Assembly (NCBI GenBank): GCA_028284945.1
Contig: JANQQJ010000024.1
Coordinates: forward strand, 62,001-126,000
DNA from: Alphaproteobacteria bacterium
GTDB taxonomy: Bacteria; Pseudomonadota; Alphaproteobacteria; SMXS01
Direction: 5' to 3'
Length of the DNA: 64,000 nt
In this document: one piece after another, positions 27,437-32,238 of the stretch
How positions within the stretch are numbered: the stretch's first letter is position 1
Layout: the number at the start of each line of letters is the position of its first letter
The notes under the pieces: generated by a model
Database searches by the model: none
What the model was told of the DNA's origin: nothing
Seen by the model: the letters and a program-made list of their open reading frames with translations, nothing else
Position numbers and translations under genes: made by a program

Positions 27437-27536
27437 CGTCATTGCGAGCCGGCCAACGGGCGGCGCGGCAATCCATCTACATGAAGCGTACAATACGGCA
27501 GTGGATTGCTTCGTCGCGAGGCTCCTCGCAATGACG
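27437..27536. repeat. Intergenic palindromic repeat, CATTGCGAG family, copy 2
   Basis: CGTCATTGCGAGC at the left end is inverted at the right end as CTCGCAATGACG, and GCAATCCA faces GTGGATTGCTTCG inside. It lies between convergent hyuB and P450 genes. Matching copies are at 6136-6241 and 33303-33402. Confidence 0.8.
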
Positions 27537-27549
27537 AACGGTGCGGTCG

Positions 27550-28827
27550 TTAAACCTTATCAAACGCCATCGGAATTTCATTCAGCGCCCGCATCCACAT
27601 ACCGTGCATCCGGCTGTATTCCTGCTGATCGTCAACCGGCCGGATGTTCTTCAGGCGCGAGAACAGAATGTCCCAGGCGCACATCTGCTCGAAACGGCTG
27701 AGCGACGCACCCGGGCAATGATGCTCGCCCATGGCGAAGGCGAAATGCCGGCCCGCATTCTTGCGGTCGAGTTTGGGCACGCCGGGATCCGGGAATTGGC
27801 GCGGATCGCGGTTGCCAGCGCCGAAGCGGATGCTCAGCGTCGACCCTTTCGGGACTTTCACGCCGCCGATTTCTGAGTCTTCGGTGACGTAGCGATACAT
27901 GCCCTGGGTCGGCGATTCGACGCGCAGCACCTCTTCAACAAAGCTGCGGACCTGCGACTGATCCTGTTCGAGCTGACGGGCAATCTCGGGAAACTGGAAC
28001 AACAGGTAAAGCCCGTTGGAGAGCGCGAAGGTCGTGGTTTCATTGCCACCGATCAGCAAATGATCGGTAACGCCGATAATCTCTTCATCCTTCAGCGGGC
28101 GATGCTTGTCCAGTTCAACATCGAAGATTTCGATCTGTGTCAGCCGCGTGATGATGTCGTCCTTCGGGTTCTTTTTCTTCTCCTGCATCGTCTCGTAGAT
28201 GTAGTGCTGCAGTTCGACATGCTTTTCGACCGCCCATTTTTCGTCTTCGAGGCTTAGACCGCGGGAGAACGGCCAGACCCAGGCAAAGGACCACTCTTTC
28301 AGCTTGGGCAGGTCCATGCGCGGGAAGCCGAGCAGTTCGGCAATCACCAGCATGGGCAGCGGGTCGGAGAAGTCTTTAATAAACTCGCACTGGCCGTCAT
28401 CGATCCATTGATCGATCAGCTCGTTCACCGTCTTGCGGATGAACGGCTCCTGCTTTTTAACCTCGGTCATGGTCAGCGCCGGGTCTACCAGGTCCCGGTA
28501 GTGCTTGTGCTTCGGCAGGTTCTCGCCCAGCGGCGTGTAACGGCGCCAGCCCTTCTCTTCATAGATGGCGCGGGCCTCATCATGCTTGATCAGCGGCTCG
28601 TTCTGTTGGACGTCGGCAGCGGTGGTGAACTTTTCCGGCTGACGCAATACCTCTTCGATGTCGTCATAGCGGGTCAGCACATACATGCCGATCTGTTCCA
28701 TGAAATAGGCCGGCGATTCCTCGCGGATCACGTCATAGGCGTCGAACCAGTTTTCCTGGACCTTGGGGTCCATGAAATCGATTTCCGCCGCCGAGCTGAA
28801 TGGGCAGCCTGAAGCTTCCTTGTTCAT
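27550..28827 (-). CDS. Cytochrome P450
   Basis: At 425 residues this is a bacterial soluble P450. The haem-binding block is FAMGEHHCPGASL, with the ligand Cys near residue 371. The I-helix has LIGGNETTTFALSNG, and EEVLR gives the ExxR of the K helix. It inserts one oxygen atom into an organic substrate and needs ferredoxin and a reductase that are not visible nearby. The clustered Rieske, SDR and CoA-pathway genes suggest a role in degrading a hydrophobic or terpenoid compound, which is an inference. Confidence 0.95.
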   Translation of the reverse strand: MNKEASGCPFSSAAEIDFMDPKVQENWFDAYDVIREESPAYFMEQIGMYVLTRYDDIEEVLRQPEKFTTAADVQQNEPLIKHDEARAIYEEKGWRRYTPLGENLPKHKHYRDLVDPALTMTEVKKQEPFIRKTVNELIDQWIDDGQCEFIKDFSDPLPMLVIAELLGFPRMDLPKLKEWSFAWVWPFSRGLSLEDEKWAVEKHVELQHYIYETMQEKKKNPKDDIITRLTQIEIFDVELDKHRPLKDEEIIGVTDHLLIGGNETTTFALSNGLYLLFQFPEIARQLEQDQSQVRSFVEEVLRVESPTQGMYRYVTEDSEIGGVKVPKGSTLSIRFGAGNRDPRQFPDPGVPKLDRKNAGRHFAFAMGEHHCPGASLSRFEQMCAWDILFSRLKNIRPVDDQQEYSRMHGMWMRALNEIPMAFDKV

Positions 28828-29138
28828 CTGAGTTCTCCCGATCCCCGAATCCGCGTTAAAGTCACGCGTGAAGGTATTGTAGCGTCAACGGGCGCAGGGA
28901 TGCAATGATTGCTCCGATTAATGGCTATCCATCGAACTACCACCAGAAATCGTGATTCGCCAATTGGCCGCACCCGGGCCATACTGCAATTAGATATTGT
29001 AGACGAGGTATGCTCTTGAAAATCTTCCTTTCTCAGGGCAAGCAGCCAAAGTGAGAAAACCTTCGACCTATAGTTGCAGACTCAATCGCAATCAATTTTT
29101 GAAAATAGGGCGCATTTGCGTCCAAAAAGGGGAACGTA
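28828..29138. other. Intergenic region entering a low-GC insert
   Basis: No supported gene lies in these 311 bp. Base composition shifts towards AT from about 28910. A 32-codon frame at 28921 lacks a ribosome site. Just before the SDH gene, GGGCGCATTTGCGTCC (29108-29123) could form a small hairpin next to the ribosome site. Confidence 0.5.
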
Positions 29139-30038
29139 ATGGACCCGATAACCGCAGATGAGATTATTGAATTAACCCTTCGCAATGGAAACGAAAGTAT
29201 ATCCAAGATTTTCGACGCCGATGTGTTGATATTGTCTACTCCAATGTTACCTGGCGTAGACGATGTCGTACGCGCTGCAATTGAGGAGCTTCAGGACGAA
29301 AATCCGAATACAAATAACATTGCGATCATTCTTGAAACACCTGGAGGTTACATTGAAGTCGTTGAGCGCATTGTCGCAGTACTTAGAAGACACTATACGG
29401 AAGTTAAATTTGTAATTCCAAGCTTTGCCTACTCCGCCGGGACAGTATTAGCGCTATCAGGCGATGAAATATATATGGACTATTACTCCGTACTAGGACC
29501 CATTGACCCCCAATTTCAAACTGATAGCGGCGATCCAGTGCCAGGAATGGGCTACCTAGCCAAATATAGAGATCTCGTAGACAAAATTAATAATGTGGAT
29601 ACTGGTAAGGAGGCCTCCGTCCGCGCTGAACTAGCGTTCCTGATACAAAAGTTCGACCCCGCGAAGCTATTCCACATCGAACAATCAATACAGCACGCTG
29701 AAGCGCTTCTGAAAGACTGGCTACCCAAGTACAAATTCAGAAACTGGAAGATGACTAAGAGCCGCGGAGTCAAAGTATCTGAACAGTACAAAGAAGATAG
29801 GGCCAGTCAAATTGCAGAAAAACTAGGAGATGCAGAGCATTGGCATTCACATGGCCGCGGTATTTCTATGAAGGAATTAGCGGGCGACGACATTGGATTA
29901 CAGATCGAGGATTTTGGTGCAGACCCACAAATGAGCGCTGGAATTCGCCACTATTTTGGCTTATTTAACGATTACACTCAGAAATTAGGAGCCCAGAGTG
30001 CTGCGCACACGCGCCTGGGACTTAGGAGAATCCAGTGA
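29139..30038 (+). CDS. SDH-family (ClpP/SppA-like) serine protease
   Basis: The 299-residue protein resembles the serine dehydrogenase proteinase (SDH_sah) family with the ClpP/crotonase-like fold. Visible blocks are IAIILETPGGYIEVVERI (oxyanion strand), then VIPSFAYSAGTVLALSGDEIYMD, where YSAG carries the likely nucleophilic Ser, and YSVLGPIDPQ. No transmembrane segment or signal peptide is seen, so it is probably cytosolic. Local GC is far below that of neighbours (28/60 and 24/60 in two counted lines versus 45/60 at 32401), which suggests recent transfer. AAAAAGGGGAACGTA precedes the ATG. The next gene overlaps its stop. Confidence 0.82.
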   Translation: MDPITADEIIELTLRNGNESISKIFDADVLILSTPMLPGVDDVVRAAIEELQDENPNTNNIAIILETPGGYIEVVERIVAVLRRHYTEVKFVIPSFAYSAGTVLALSGDEIYMDYYSVLGPIDPQFQTDSGDPVPGMGYLAKYRDLVDKINNVDTGKEASVRAELAFLIQKFDPAKLFHIEQSIQHAEALLKDWLPKYKFRNWKMTKSRGVKVSEQYKEDRASQIAEKLGDAEHWHSHGRGISMKELAGDDIGLQIEDFGADPQMSAGIRHYFGLFNDYTQKLGAQSAAHTRLGLRRIQ

Positions 30039-30229
30039 ATTACAAGCGAGAGAAAGAGCTATTGCTGGAGAAACTGTTCAGGTTTCCTGAGCTTGCCGCG
30101 ATTTTAGAAACAGATGTAATGGTCAGCGAAAATGCTGGCAGCAAGGAATCTGAAGAGAACTTTAGAATGCCTTATACCAGTCCACCTCTTCGGACTGGAA
30201 CAAAGTGGAATATGAGCAAGTCCGTCTAG
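30035..30229 (+). CDS. Small hypothetical protein coupled to the SDH-like protease
   Basis: A 64-residue protein I do not recognise. The N-terminal half (YKREKELLLEKLFRFPELAAIL) is charged and probably helical; the C-terminal half is polar and low in structure. Its GTG overlaps the protease TGA (GTGA), with TAGGAGA about 7 nt upstream, so the two are translated as a unit. It shares the low GC of the protease gene. It could be an adaptor, substrate or inhibitor of the protease; none of these is shown by sequence. Confidence 0.6.
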   Translation: MNYKREKELLLEKLFRFPELAAILETDVMVSENAGSKESEENFRMPYTSPPLRTGTKWNMSKSV

Positions 30230-30237
30230 GAACTAAA

Positions 30238-31023
30238 TCACCGCCCCTCAAACACTGGTTTTTCCTTGGCCATGAAGGCGCGGCGGGCGTTCTTGAAGTC
30301 GTCACTGTCCATGCAGTCGGCGACAGCGGATTGCGGTCCTGACATATCGCGCTCGCCGTCGGGCTTGACCAGCTCCGCCACTGATAGTTTGGCAGCGCGG
30401 ATCGTCAGCGGCGCATTCTGCGCGATGGTTTCGGCGATGGCGCGCACCTCTGGTTCCAGATCACTGTCGCCATAGACCCGGTTCACCAACCCCAGCTCAT
30501 AGGCTTCAGCGGCGCTGTAACGCCGGGCGGTGAAGAGAATTTCCTTGGTACGGGACGGGCCAATGATATCGGTCAGGAACTTCACGTAGTCCGGGCTATA
30601 GCCCACCCCCAACCGTGCCGCAGGCACCGAAAAGCGTGACCGTTCACTACAAAACCGCAAATCGCAGCAAGTAGCGAGCGCGACGCCACCGCCAAAACAA
30701 ATCCCGTCGATCATGGCGATGGTCGGCTTTTCCACATCGCGCAGGGCAAAGAACATGCGGTTGGTCATATCGCTGTAGCGGGCCGCATCATCGGCATTGC
30801 CGCGCTTGGCATCGAACTCGGAGATATCGGCGCCGGAGACAAACGCCTTACCGCCTGACCCGGTGACGATCAACACCCGCTCGCTACTGTTCGCAGCGAA
30901 GTCCTCGATCACCGCGTGTGCCGCCTGGGTCATCTCGAGCGACATGGCGTTGTGCTTGTCCGGCCGGTTGAAGATCAGCCAGCGGATCGGTCCTTCGCTC
31001 CTGGAAAGAATATCGTCGGTCAT
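30238..31023 (-). CDS. Enoyl-CoA hydratase/isomerase family protein
   Basis: This 261-residue crotonase-fold protein has the first oxyanion block KAFVSGADISEF and the second CFGGGVALATCCD. In the position of the canonical PEI motif it has SVPAARLGVGYSPD, so the first catalytic Glu of standard enoyl-CoA hydratases is Ala. That points to an isomerase or another crotonase activity. It is 24 bp downstream of the CaiB CoA-transferase gene, forming an operon for a CoA-linked degradation route. Confidence 0.88.
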   Translation of the reverse strand: MTDDILSRSEGPIRWLIFNRPDKHNAMSLEMTQAAHAVIEDFAANSSERVLIVTGSGGKAFVSGADISEFDAKRGNADDAARYSDMTNRMFFALRDVEKPTIAMIDGICFGGGVALATCCDLRFCSERSRFSVPAARLGVGYSPDYVKFLTDIIGPSRTKEILFTARRYSAAEAYELGLVNRVYGDSDLEPEVRAIAETIAQNAPLTIRAAKLSVAELVKPDGERDMSGPQSAVADCMDSDDFKNARRAFMAKEKPVFEGR

Positions 31024-31047
31024 TTGGCTCCCTTTCTGATGCGGGGC

Positions 31048-32238
31048 TTAAAGAACATTGCGGCGGCGCAGCTCAGCAATCTCGTCAGCGCTGAAACCCA
31101 GCTTGCTGAGCACATCATCCGTATCGGCCCCGAGCTCCGGTGTCGCCGAGGCAATATGGCTGGGCGTGCGGTTCATGCTAATCGCCTGGGCCAGCAGGCT
31201 GATCGGGCCGAGCGACGGCGACTCGACCGCCTCCGCGATGCCTAGGTGCTGAACCTGTTCATCGGCGAAGGCCTCATCGATGCCGTAGATCGGCCCACAC
31301 GGAATCCCGGCCTCATTCAACAGCGCGATCCAGTGGTCGCTGTCGCGGGTGGTGGTGACGTCTTCGACGATCCGGGTCACCTCGGCGCGCCGCTTCAGCC
31401 GTTCCTGGGGCGTGCTGAAGGCCGGGTCATCAGCCAGATCATTGAGCCCCATGGCCGCACAGAACCGGCTCCAGGCCATCGGCATCGCGGCAATGTTGAT
31501 GTGTCCGTCGGCCGTCCGGTAGGTGCCCATGGGGACGGCGGTCGGATGGTCGTTGCCCGCCTGGCCGGGCACGTCGCCGCGCATCAGATAGCGCGCGGCC
31601 TGGAAGTCCAGCATAAAAAGCTGCGCCTCCAGCAAGGACGTCTGCACCCATTGCCCCTCGCCCGAAACCTCGCGTTCCAGCAGCGCCGTCAATGTGCCGA
31701 TCGCGCCTAAGAGCCCGCCTGCCATATCGGCGACAGCGATGCCGGCGCGCACCGGCCCCTGCCCTGGCAGGCCGGTCACCGACATCATGCCGCCCATGCC
31801 TTGGGCAATCTGGTCGAGCCCGGGTCGGTCCGCATAGGGGCCGGTCTGCCCGAAGCCGGAAATGCTGGTCAGCACCAGCCGTGGGTTGATGGCCTTGAGC
31901 GTCTCATAACCAAAGCCCAGCCGCTCCTTCACGTCCGGCCGATAATTCTCAACCAGCACGTCGGCCTGGGCGGCCATCTTCAAGAGAATGTCGAGCCCGT
32001 CCGGGTCTTTCAGATTGAGCGTCATCGACCGCTTGTTGCGGTGCAGGTTCTGAAAATCCGGATCATAACGGCTGGCGAAATCCTGCGGCACGTCGTCCCC
32101 ACCCGCGGGCAGCTCCACCTTGATAACATCGGCGCCCCAATCCCCCAACTGGCGCGCGCAGACCGGCCCCGCCCGGGCCCGGGTCAGATCGATGACGGTA
32201 AAGCGCGACAGCGCCGATGAGGCAGGCTCGCGGCGCAT
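31048..32238 (-). CDS. CaiB/BaiF family (class III) CoA-transferase
   Basis: The 396-residue protein has typical family blocks: VIDLTRARAGPVCARQLGDWGADVIKVE, NKRSMTLNLKDPDG, SISGFGQTGPYADRPG, and AVADMAGG with the candidate catalytic Asp. It moves CoA between carboxylic acids, as in carnitine, oxalate or bile-acid metabolism. It is in an operon with the crotonase-fold protein downstream and is divergent from the SDR at 32313. Confidence 0.93.
   Translation of the reverse strand: MRREPASSALSRFTVIDLTRARAGPVCARQLGDWGADVIKVELPAGGDDVPQDFASRYDPDFQNLHRNKRSMTLNLKDPDGLDILLKMAAQADVLVENYRPDVKERLGFGYETLKAINPRLVLTSISGFGQTGPYADRPGLDQIAQGMGGMMSVTGLPGQGPVRAGIAVADMAGGLLGAIGTLTALLEREVSGEGQWVQTSLLEAQLFMLDFQAARYLMRGDVPGQAGNDHPTAVPMGTYRTADGHINIAAMPMAWSRFCAAMGLNDLADDPAFSTPQERLKRRAEVTRIVEDVTTTRDSDHWIALLNEAGIPCGPIYGIDEAFADEQVQHLGIAEAVESPSLGPISLLAQAISMNRTPSHIASATPELGADTDDVLSKLGFSADEIAELRRRNVL

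What the first reader, a model, noticed from the sequence alone, without database searches (positions are those of the whole stretch)
29139..30229. Low-GC two-gene insert: SDH-type serine protease coupled to a small unknown protein
The pair has 40-47% GC in counted lines against 75% in a nearby gene. The GTGA overlap shows that the two are translated together, and the insert fits tightly between host metabolic genes. A cytosolic ClpP-like protease with a 64-residue partner is the type of arrangement expected of a stress, regulation or defence module, but none is assigned.
Basis: partly seen in the sequence, partly recalled or inferred. Interest (0 to 1): 0.6.

Follow-up and report, generated by a model that had tools for sequence, protein, structure and literature searches.

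The report
Mobile ClpP-like protease with small partner
A low-GC pair of overlapping genes, a ClpP-like protease and a 64-residue partner, belongs to a two-gene unit that jumps between bacteria of many phyla in transposons, prophages and plasmids, next to or in place of known toxin-antitoxin and phage-defence genes, so it is probably a protease-based toxin-antitoxin or anti-phage module that has not been described.

Summary
In detail: 29139-30038 (299-aa SDH-type ClpP-fold protease) and 30035-30229 (64 aa) overlap by GTGA, at 45% GC in a 59% GC window, and the pair is absent from relatives. The claim of 75% GC nearby does not hold. Homologues occur in 466 places among about 85,000 species, in many phyla. 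Of 74 assessable loci, 73 carry a 50-95 aa gene within 60 nt downstream. A profile built without the window's small protein finds it at E=4e-5. The partner has a helical N-terminus and a conserved P[FY][SG] tail motif. About a third of loci lie in an IS1-like transposon (KGG gene, protease, partner, transposase; inverted repeats; perfect 8-bp target duplications). Transposons of the same family carry HigBA/PD-Lambda-2-like, RosmerTA-like or other modules in that slot. Other copies occupy the cI-N hotspot of E. coli lambdoid prophages, plasmids (beside a multiubiquitin operon), integrase and tRNA sites. One copy has a SocA/Panacea antitoxin instead of the partner. Best reading: a mobile toxin-antitoxin-like or abortive-infection module with a Ser-Asp-His protease as effector and the small protein as its keeper. 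Mobility and pairing are shown; toxicity, inhibition and defence are inferred.

The parts
29139..30038 (+). SDH-type, ClpP-fold serine protease, 299 aa, no signal peptide or membrane segment apparent by eye
   Evidence: Pfam PF01972 63.7 bits against cut-off 31.3; AlphaFold2 mean pLDDT 95.5, pTM 0.92; ClpP fold Z 14.5
29433..29435 (+). codon of Ser99, presumed nucleophile (A-x-SAGT)
   Evidence: invariant in 68 homologues
29505..29507 (+). codon of Asp123 (LGPIDPQ), presumed catalytic Asp
   Evidence: invariant in 68 homologues
29850..29852 (+). codon of His238 (WHSHGR), presumed catalytic His
   Evidence: invariant in 68 homologues; one more distant sequence (L016) has Arg
30035..30229 (+). 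64-aa partner protein
   Evidence: adjacent small ORF in 73/74 homologous loci; profile hit E=3.7e-5
30035..30038 (+). GTGA overlap of stop and start codons (coupled translation inferred)
   Evidence: sequence; gap of 0 or less in 40 of 73 loci
30164..30208 (+). C-terminal signature of the partner, R-M-P-Y-T-S-P-P...W (residues 44-58)
   Evidence: shared with the homologous partners as [LF]PY[SG]...W
28828..29138 (.). low-GC (47.9%) intergenic stretch upstream, likely the pair's promoter region; no KGG gene, transposase or transposon end found
   Evidence: no significant promoter or terminator match

Best explanation
The pair is a mobile, two-gene toxin-antitoxin-like module, most likely used for abortive infection or for maintenance of mobile DNA. 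The first gene makes a soluble ClpP-fold protease with a Ser99-Asp123-His238 active site that cleaves host or phage proteins when released. The overlapping second gene makes a small, partly disordered protein whose helical N-terminus and extended P[FY][SG]-type tail bind the protease and keep it off until infection or loss of the unit upsets the balance. Shown: the pairing, the conserved residues and motif, the patchy spread across phyla, the transposon, prophage and plasmid homes, and the swap with TA/defence cargo. Inferred: proteolysis, toxicity, inhibition by the partner, and the trigger.
For: Invariant S99, D123 and H238 in 68 homologues and a confident ClpP-fold model. Partner in 73/74 loci, in 40 with no gap or an overlap. 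Patchy: 13/385 genomes of the class, 19/5426 E. coli genomes, 466 places in about 85,000 species. Pair GC is below its flanks in 73/73 loci, mean -11 points (control genes). It is cargo of an IS1-like transposon with inverted repeats and perfect 8-bp duplications in 9 loci, 7/8 in three more. In the same slot other copies of this transposon carry HigB plus HigA-M78 (PD-Lambda-2_B E 1e-39 and 9e-41), XRE-M78 (RmrA E 7e-65), DinD and GNAT proteins; PD-Lambda-2 is a tested phage-defence TA-like system (PMC9519451) and RmrA the antitoxin of tested phage-defence TA systems (PMC10440598). In E. coli prophages it lies between the CI/LexA-type repressor and the N region, the rexAB/bstA hotspot (PMC8585504). 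A SocA/Panacea antitoxin follows the protease in the one assessed locus without the partner (NF047745 E 1e-25). The partner survives without an intact protease (2 E. coli strains; 5 loci with an interrupted protease) and is tandemly tripled in L039 while only the C-terminal third of the protease is.
Against: No experiment. PADLOC has no model for either protein. The fused AlphaFold2 model does not place the partner's tail (pLDDT under 50), so no inhibitory contact is seen. One locus (L019) has an intact protease and a frameshifted partner. Toxin-first order and a partner without a DNA-binding domain are less usual for type II TA. Not all slot-mates are TA (several have no family hit). Retention of the partner alone may be a relic or, in MAGs, a sequencing error.
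Confidence: 0.58

Rival explanations
1. The partner is an adaptor or activator: it delivers particular proteins to the protease, or opens it, and the pair is a regulatory or stress-response proteolytic module (still mobile, possibly still defensive).
For: ClpP-fold proteases are usually controlled by adaptors; SocA, found in the partner's place in L081, is from memory a ClpXP adaptor; no AAA+ unfoldase recurs among 1,005 neighbours, so something else must control substrate entry; the partner has a helix-plus-tail form.
Against: The partner is kept where the protease is deleted or broken, which a mere activator would not explain; slot-mates are toxin-antitoxin pairs.
Confidence: 0.24
2. The genes are accessories of the IS1-like transposon and regulate its transposition, for instance by degrading the transposase.
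For: Protease and transposase distances correlate strongly (Mantel r 0.84, 12 elements), so they have long travelled together.
Against: The same transposon family moves with quite different cargo, and about two thirds of pairs, including the window's and the E. coli prophage copies, have no transposon. The KGG gene, not the protease, is the constant companion of the transposase.
Confidence: 0.07
3. The small protein is the substrate: a precursor peptide that the protease matures into a signal or toxin.
For: A variable N-terminal part and a conserved C-terminal motif resemble a leader and a core.
Against: No exporter or modification gene recurs beside the pair; the tail motif sits at a varying distance from the end and is followed by variable sequence.
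Confidence: 0.07
4. An ordinary host housekeeping protease with a neighbouring small gene, inherited vertically.
For: It sits tightly among metabolic genes.
Against: Absent from same-family genomes, lowest GC of the window, carried by mobile elements elsewhere, tree not following taxonomy.
Confidence: 0.02

Closest known systems
SDH-family ClpP-like serine proteinases (Pfam PF01972; NCBIfam NF047768; PHROG 11747)
   Same: Protease fold, Ser-Asp-His residues, Pfam score above cut-off, PHROG match over 57-279 at E 6e-49.
   Different: Below the NF047768 equivalog cut-off (76 against 250 bits). The constant small partner gene is not part of any of these family definitions.
PD-Lambda-2 and RosmerTA (RmrTA) phage-defence TA systems
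   Same: Relatives of their components fill the same cargo slot of the same transposon family; small mobile TA-type units.
   Different: Effectors are HigB-like or other toxins with an XRE-ImmA peptidase protein; here a ClpP-fold protease and a small protein without a DNA-binding domain.
TA modules carried by Tn3-family transposons (PMC7157771)
   Same: Small two-gene modules riding as exchangeable cargo next to the transposition genes.
   Different: Different transposon family (IS1-like here) and no resolvase; the protease pair is not among the TA types whose headings that paper lists.
RexAB / BstA loci between cI and N of lambdoid prophages (PMC8585504)
   Same: Same position in E. coli prophages, on the repressor's strand.
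   Different: Unrelated proteins; no defence phenotype shown for this pair.
SocAB and Panacea antitoxins (PMC10440598)
   Same: A SocA/Panacea protein replaces the partner in L081.
   Different: The usual partner has no similarity to Panacea.

Membership tests
SDH-type ClpP-like proteinase (PF01972) | Score above Pfam gathering cut-off | tested here: met
   63.7 against 31.3 bits
SDH-type ClpP-like proteinase (PF01972) | Ser-Asp-His residues in this order | tested here: met
   S99, D123, H238 invariant in 68 sequences; that these are the catalytic residues is from knowledge of the Pfam entry
SDH-type ClpP-like proteinase (PF01972) | Proteolytic activity | not testable with these tools
   needs purified protein
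NCBIfam NF047768 equivalog | Score above curated cut-off | tested here: not met
   76.1 against 250 bits
ATP-dependent ClpP | Partner AAA+ unfoldase | tested here: inconclusive
   no unfoldase recurs among neighbours, but one encoded elsewhere could serve
Toxin-antitoxin module | Small two-gene operon with overlapping or adjacent genes, constant pairing | tested here: met
   73/74 loci, gap of 0 or less in 40 of 73
Toxin-antitoxin module | Patchy, mobile distribution | tested here: met
Toxin-antitoxin module | One gene toxic, the other neutralises it | not testable with these tools
   only indirect signs
Known anti-phage defence systems (PADLOC 2023) | Match to a model of a system component | tested here: not met
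   no hit for either protein
Cargo of IS1-like KGG transposon | Lies between terminal inverted repeats with target duplication | tested here: not met
   not met for the window copy; met for L025, L029, L035, L040, L064, L066, L079, L080, L096

The most novel reading that the evidence does not exclude
A widespread, undescribed toxin-antitoxin/abortive-infection system whose toxin is a soluble ClpP-fold Ser-Asp-His protease held in check by a roughly 65-residue partner, spread by a family of IS1-like transposons that work as vehicles for exchangeable TA and phage-defence modules.
Probability: 0.42. Interest if true: 0.82.

Novelty: new variant of a known kind. Interest (0 to 1): 0.63.

Why it matters
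Proteases are uncommon effectors in toxin-antitoxin and phage-defence systems. If the reading is right, this is a protease-based module present in many phyla, with E. coli prophage copies ready for testing, and a transposon family that carries TA and defence modules in one exchangeable slot, a place to look for further unknown modules. It also gives a function to test for a phage protein family (PHROG 11747) of unknown function.

Tried and rejected
Viral-contig scan with the single protein found nothing. Phage records gave only remote relatives, some in structural gene regions. Family searches with 28 partner proteins gave only scattered single weak hits. A read-through fusion of protease and partner (L062) was folded to look for docking: the partner's two helices came out at pLDDT about 55-85 and the tail under 50, so no complex can be claimed. 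Search for transposon ends, KGG gene or transposase around the window pair was negative, and the transposase was not found in the window's genome. No empty site: P450 and hydratase are not neighbours in relatives. No RNA family in 27500-31100 and no promoter or terminator beyond chance. Paper searches for the protease family with defence, and for ISMhu11, found no description of the pair; preprints and most subscription papers are not held, so absence of a report is not shown. Considered and set aside: phage head-maturation protease (best phage family match is PHROG 11747, unknown function; surroundings are not structural in the E. coli prophages).

Full report
Observation. The two ORFs are as described: a 299-aa protease at 29139-30038 and a 64-aa ORF at 30035-30229 overlapping by GTGA. 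GC is 45.4% against 58.9% for the window, and the stretch is the lowest-GC kilobase of the window. The quoted 75% for a nearby gene is not seen at gene scale. The neighbours are a P450 and an enoyl-CoA hydratase.

Identity of the protease. It passes Pfam's SDH_protease cut-off, falls below the stricter NCBIfam equivalog and matches PHROG 11747, a phage family of unknown function, over most of its length. Ser99, Asp123 and His238 are invariant in 68 homologues. AlphaFold2 gives pLDDT 95.5 and the model is a ClpP fold (Z about 14). No AAA+ unfoldase recurs beside it.

The partner is constant. A scan of about 85,000 species found 466 relatives in many phyla. In 80 of these loci plus plasmid records and the window, 73 of 74 assessable proteases are followed within 60 nt by an ORF of 50-95 aa (median 70 aa, median gap -1 nt, 40 of 73 with a gap of zero or less); control genes have such an ORF in 155 of 529 cases. 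The partners are poorly conserved but share a tail motif, YxLxSPF in one branch and [LF]PY[SG]...W in the window's branch. A profile from 21 partners of that branch, without the window's, finds the window's at E=3.7e-5, far from unrelated ORFs. So the 64-aa ORF is a genuine gene and the pairing is old.

Mobility. The pair's GC is below that of its flanks in 73 of 73 loci; 64% of pairs but 2% of other genes lie more than 8 points below their locus. About a third of loci have a KGG-motif gene upstream and/or an IS1-like transposase downstream (NCBIfam transpos_IS1). These units are bounded by inverted repeats GGTAGTGTCTCAGTTTG and perfect 8-bp target duplications in nine loci, 7 of 8 in three more: a transposon of roughly 2.1-3.3 kb. 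Protease and transposase distances correlate (r 0.84). The window copy has none of these parts, but its sister in the tree, with 100/98 support and about 62% identity, is a transposon copy (L024). Other homes: E. coli lambdoid prophages between repressor and N, plasmids including Rhizobium/Shinella loci beside a multiubiquitin-E2, E1-JAB and DUF6527 operon, integrase- and tRNA-adjacent sites, and one locus about 2 kb from a CRISPR array region. In the window's class 13 of 385 genomes have it; same-family genomes do not.

The cargo slot. Among 289 genomes of the class, 22 further copies of this transposase carry none of this protease; one (L123) has a distant SDH relative beside it. Thirteen copies read with their flanks, or nearly so, have a KGG gene first and target duplications matching at 7 or 8 of 8 bases, and between KGG and transposase sit other modules: HigB plus HigA-M78, XRE-M78, DinD, an HTH trio, or unknown genes; a GNAT protein lies after the transposase in one. 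PADLOC calls these PD-Lambda-2_B (E about 1e-40), RmrA (E 7e-65) and PDC-S13. PD-Lambda-2 was found in a functional selection for defence (PMC9519451), and RmrA is the antitoxin of RosmerTA phage-defence systems (PMC10440598). TA pairs as exchangeable transposon cargo are known from Tn3 (PMC7157771). This 'same slot' argument is the main ground for the functional reading.

Which gene is the keeper? Signs point to the small protein, all indirect. Two E. coli strains have lost the protease and keep an intact partner (one of them read in detail); five loci with an interrupted protease keep it; L039 has three intact partner copies but one protease; L081 has a SocA/Panacea antitoxin in its place. 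Against: one intact protease with a broken partner (L019), and no modelled contact.

Conclusion. The pair is a genuine, mobile, two-gene unit with overlapping genes. The most likely mechanism is a protease toxin/effector restrained by the partner, serving defence or maintenance of mobile DNA (0.58); an adaptor role for the partner is the main rival (0.24). The protease family is known; the pair as a system, its transposon and its likely role were not found in the literature at hand. Membership in TA or defence systems is not claimed until toxicity, neutralisation or protection is shown.

Noticed in passing
L139-L152 (extended loci of other transposon copies), L025, L029, L035, L040, L064, L066, L079, L080, L096: A family of IS1-like transposons with a constant KGG-motif first gene, a transposase, GGTAGTGTCTCAGTTTG ends and 8-bp duplications, and an exchangeable cargo slot holding TA, defence or unknown modules. 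Worth a survey of its own.
   Followed up: partly
L143:3580-5023, L144:3738-4676, L145:3698-4525, L150 (three-gene HTH module), L152:1370-1987: Cargo genes of that transposon family with few or no family matches, candidates for unknown TA or defence modules.
   Followed up: partly
L008, L009, L010, L061: In Rhizobium/Shinella the pair directly follows a multiubiquitin-E2, E1-JAB and DUF6527 operon; a possible link of a bacterial ubiquitin-like system with a protease.
   Followed up: partly
L039:8888-10115: Tandem duplication: three intact partner genes, one intact protease and two C-terminal protease fragments.
   Followed up: partly
L081:5403-6796 and L014: A SocA/Panacea antitoxin gene follows the protease instead of the small partner.
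   Followed up: partly
L105:3014-3184: E. coli prophage that lost the protease but keeps the partner gene intact beside HicAB.
   Followed up: yes
L045:1-3500: CRISPR array of more than 50 repeats (GTCGCGCCCTCACGGGCGCGTGGATTGAAAC) upstream of a pair in a Cystobacterineae MAG.
   Followed up: partly
L123:2673-3345: A distant SDH-protease relative lies next to another copy of the IS1-like transposase, with its own 71-aa neighbour ORF.
   Followed up: no
window 27550-28827: The window's genome is rich in P450 genes (17 matches at E 1e-60 or better); not pursued.
   Followed up: no
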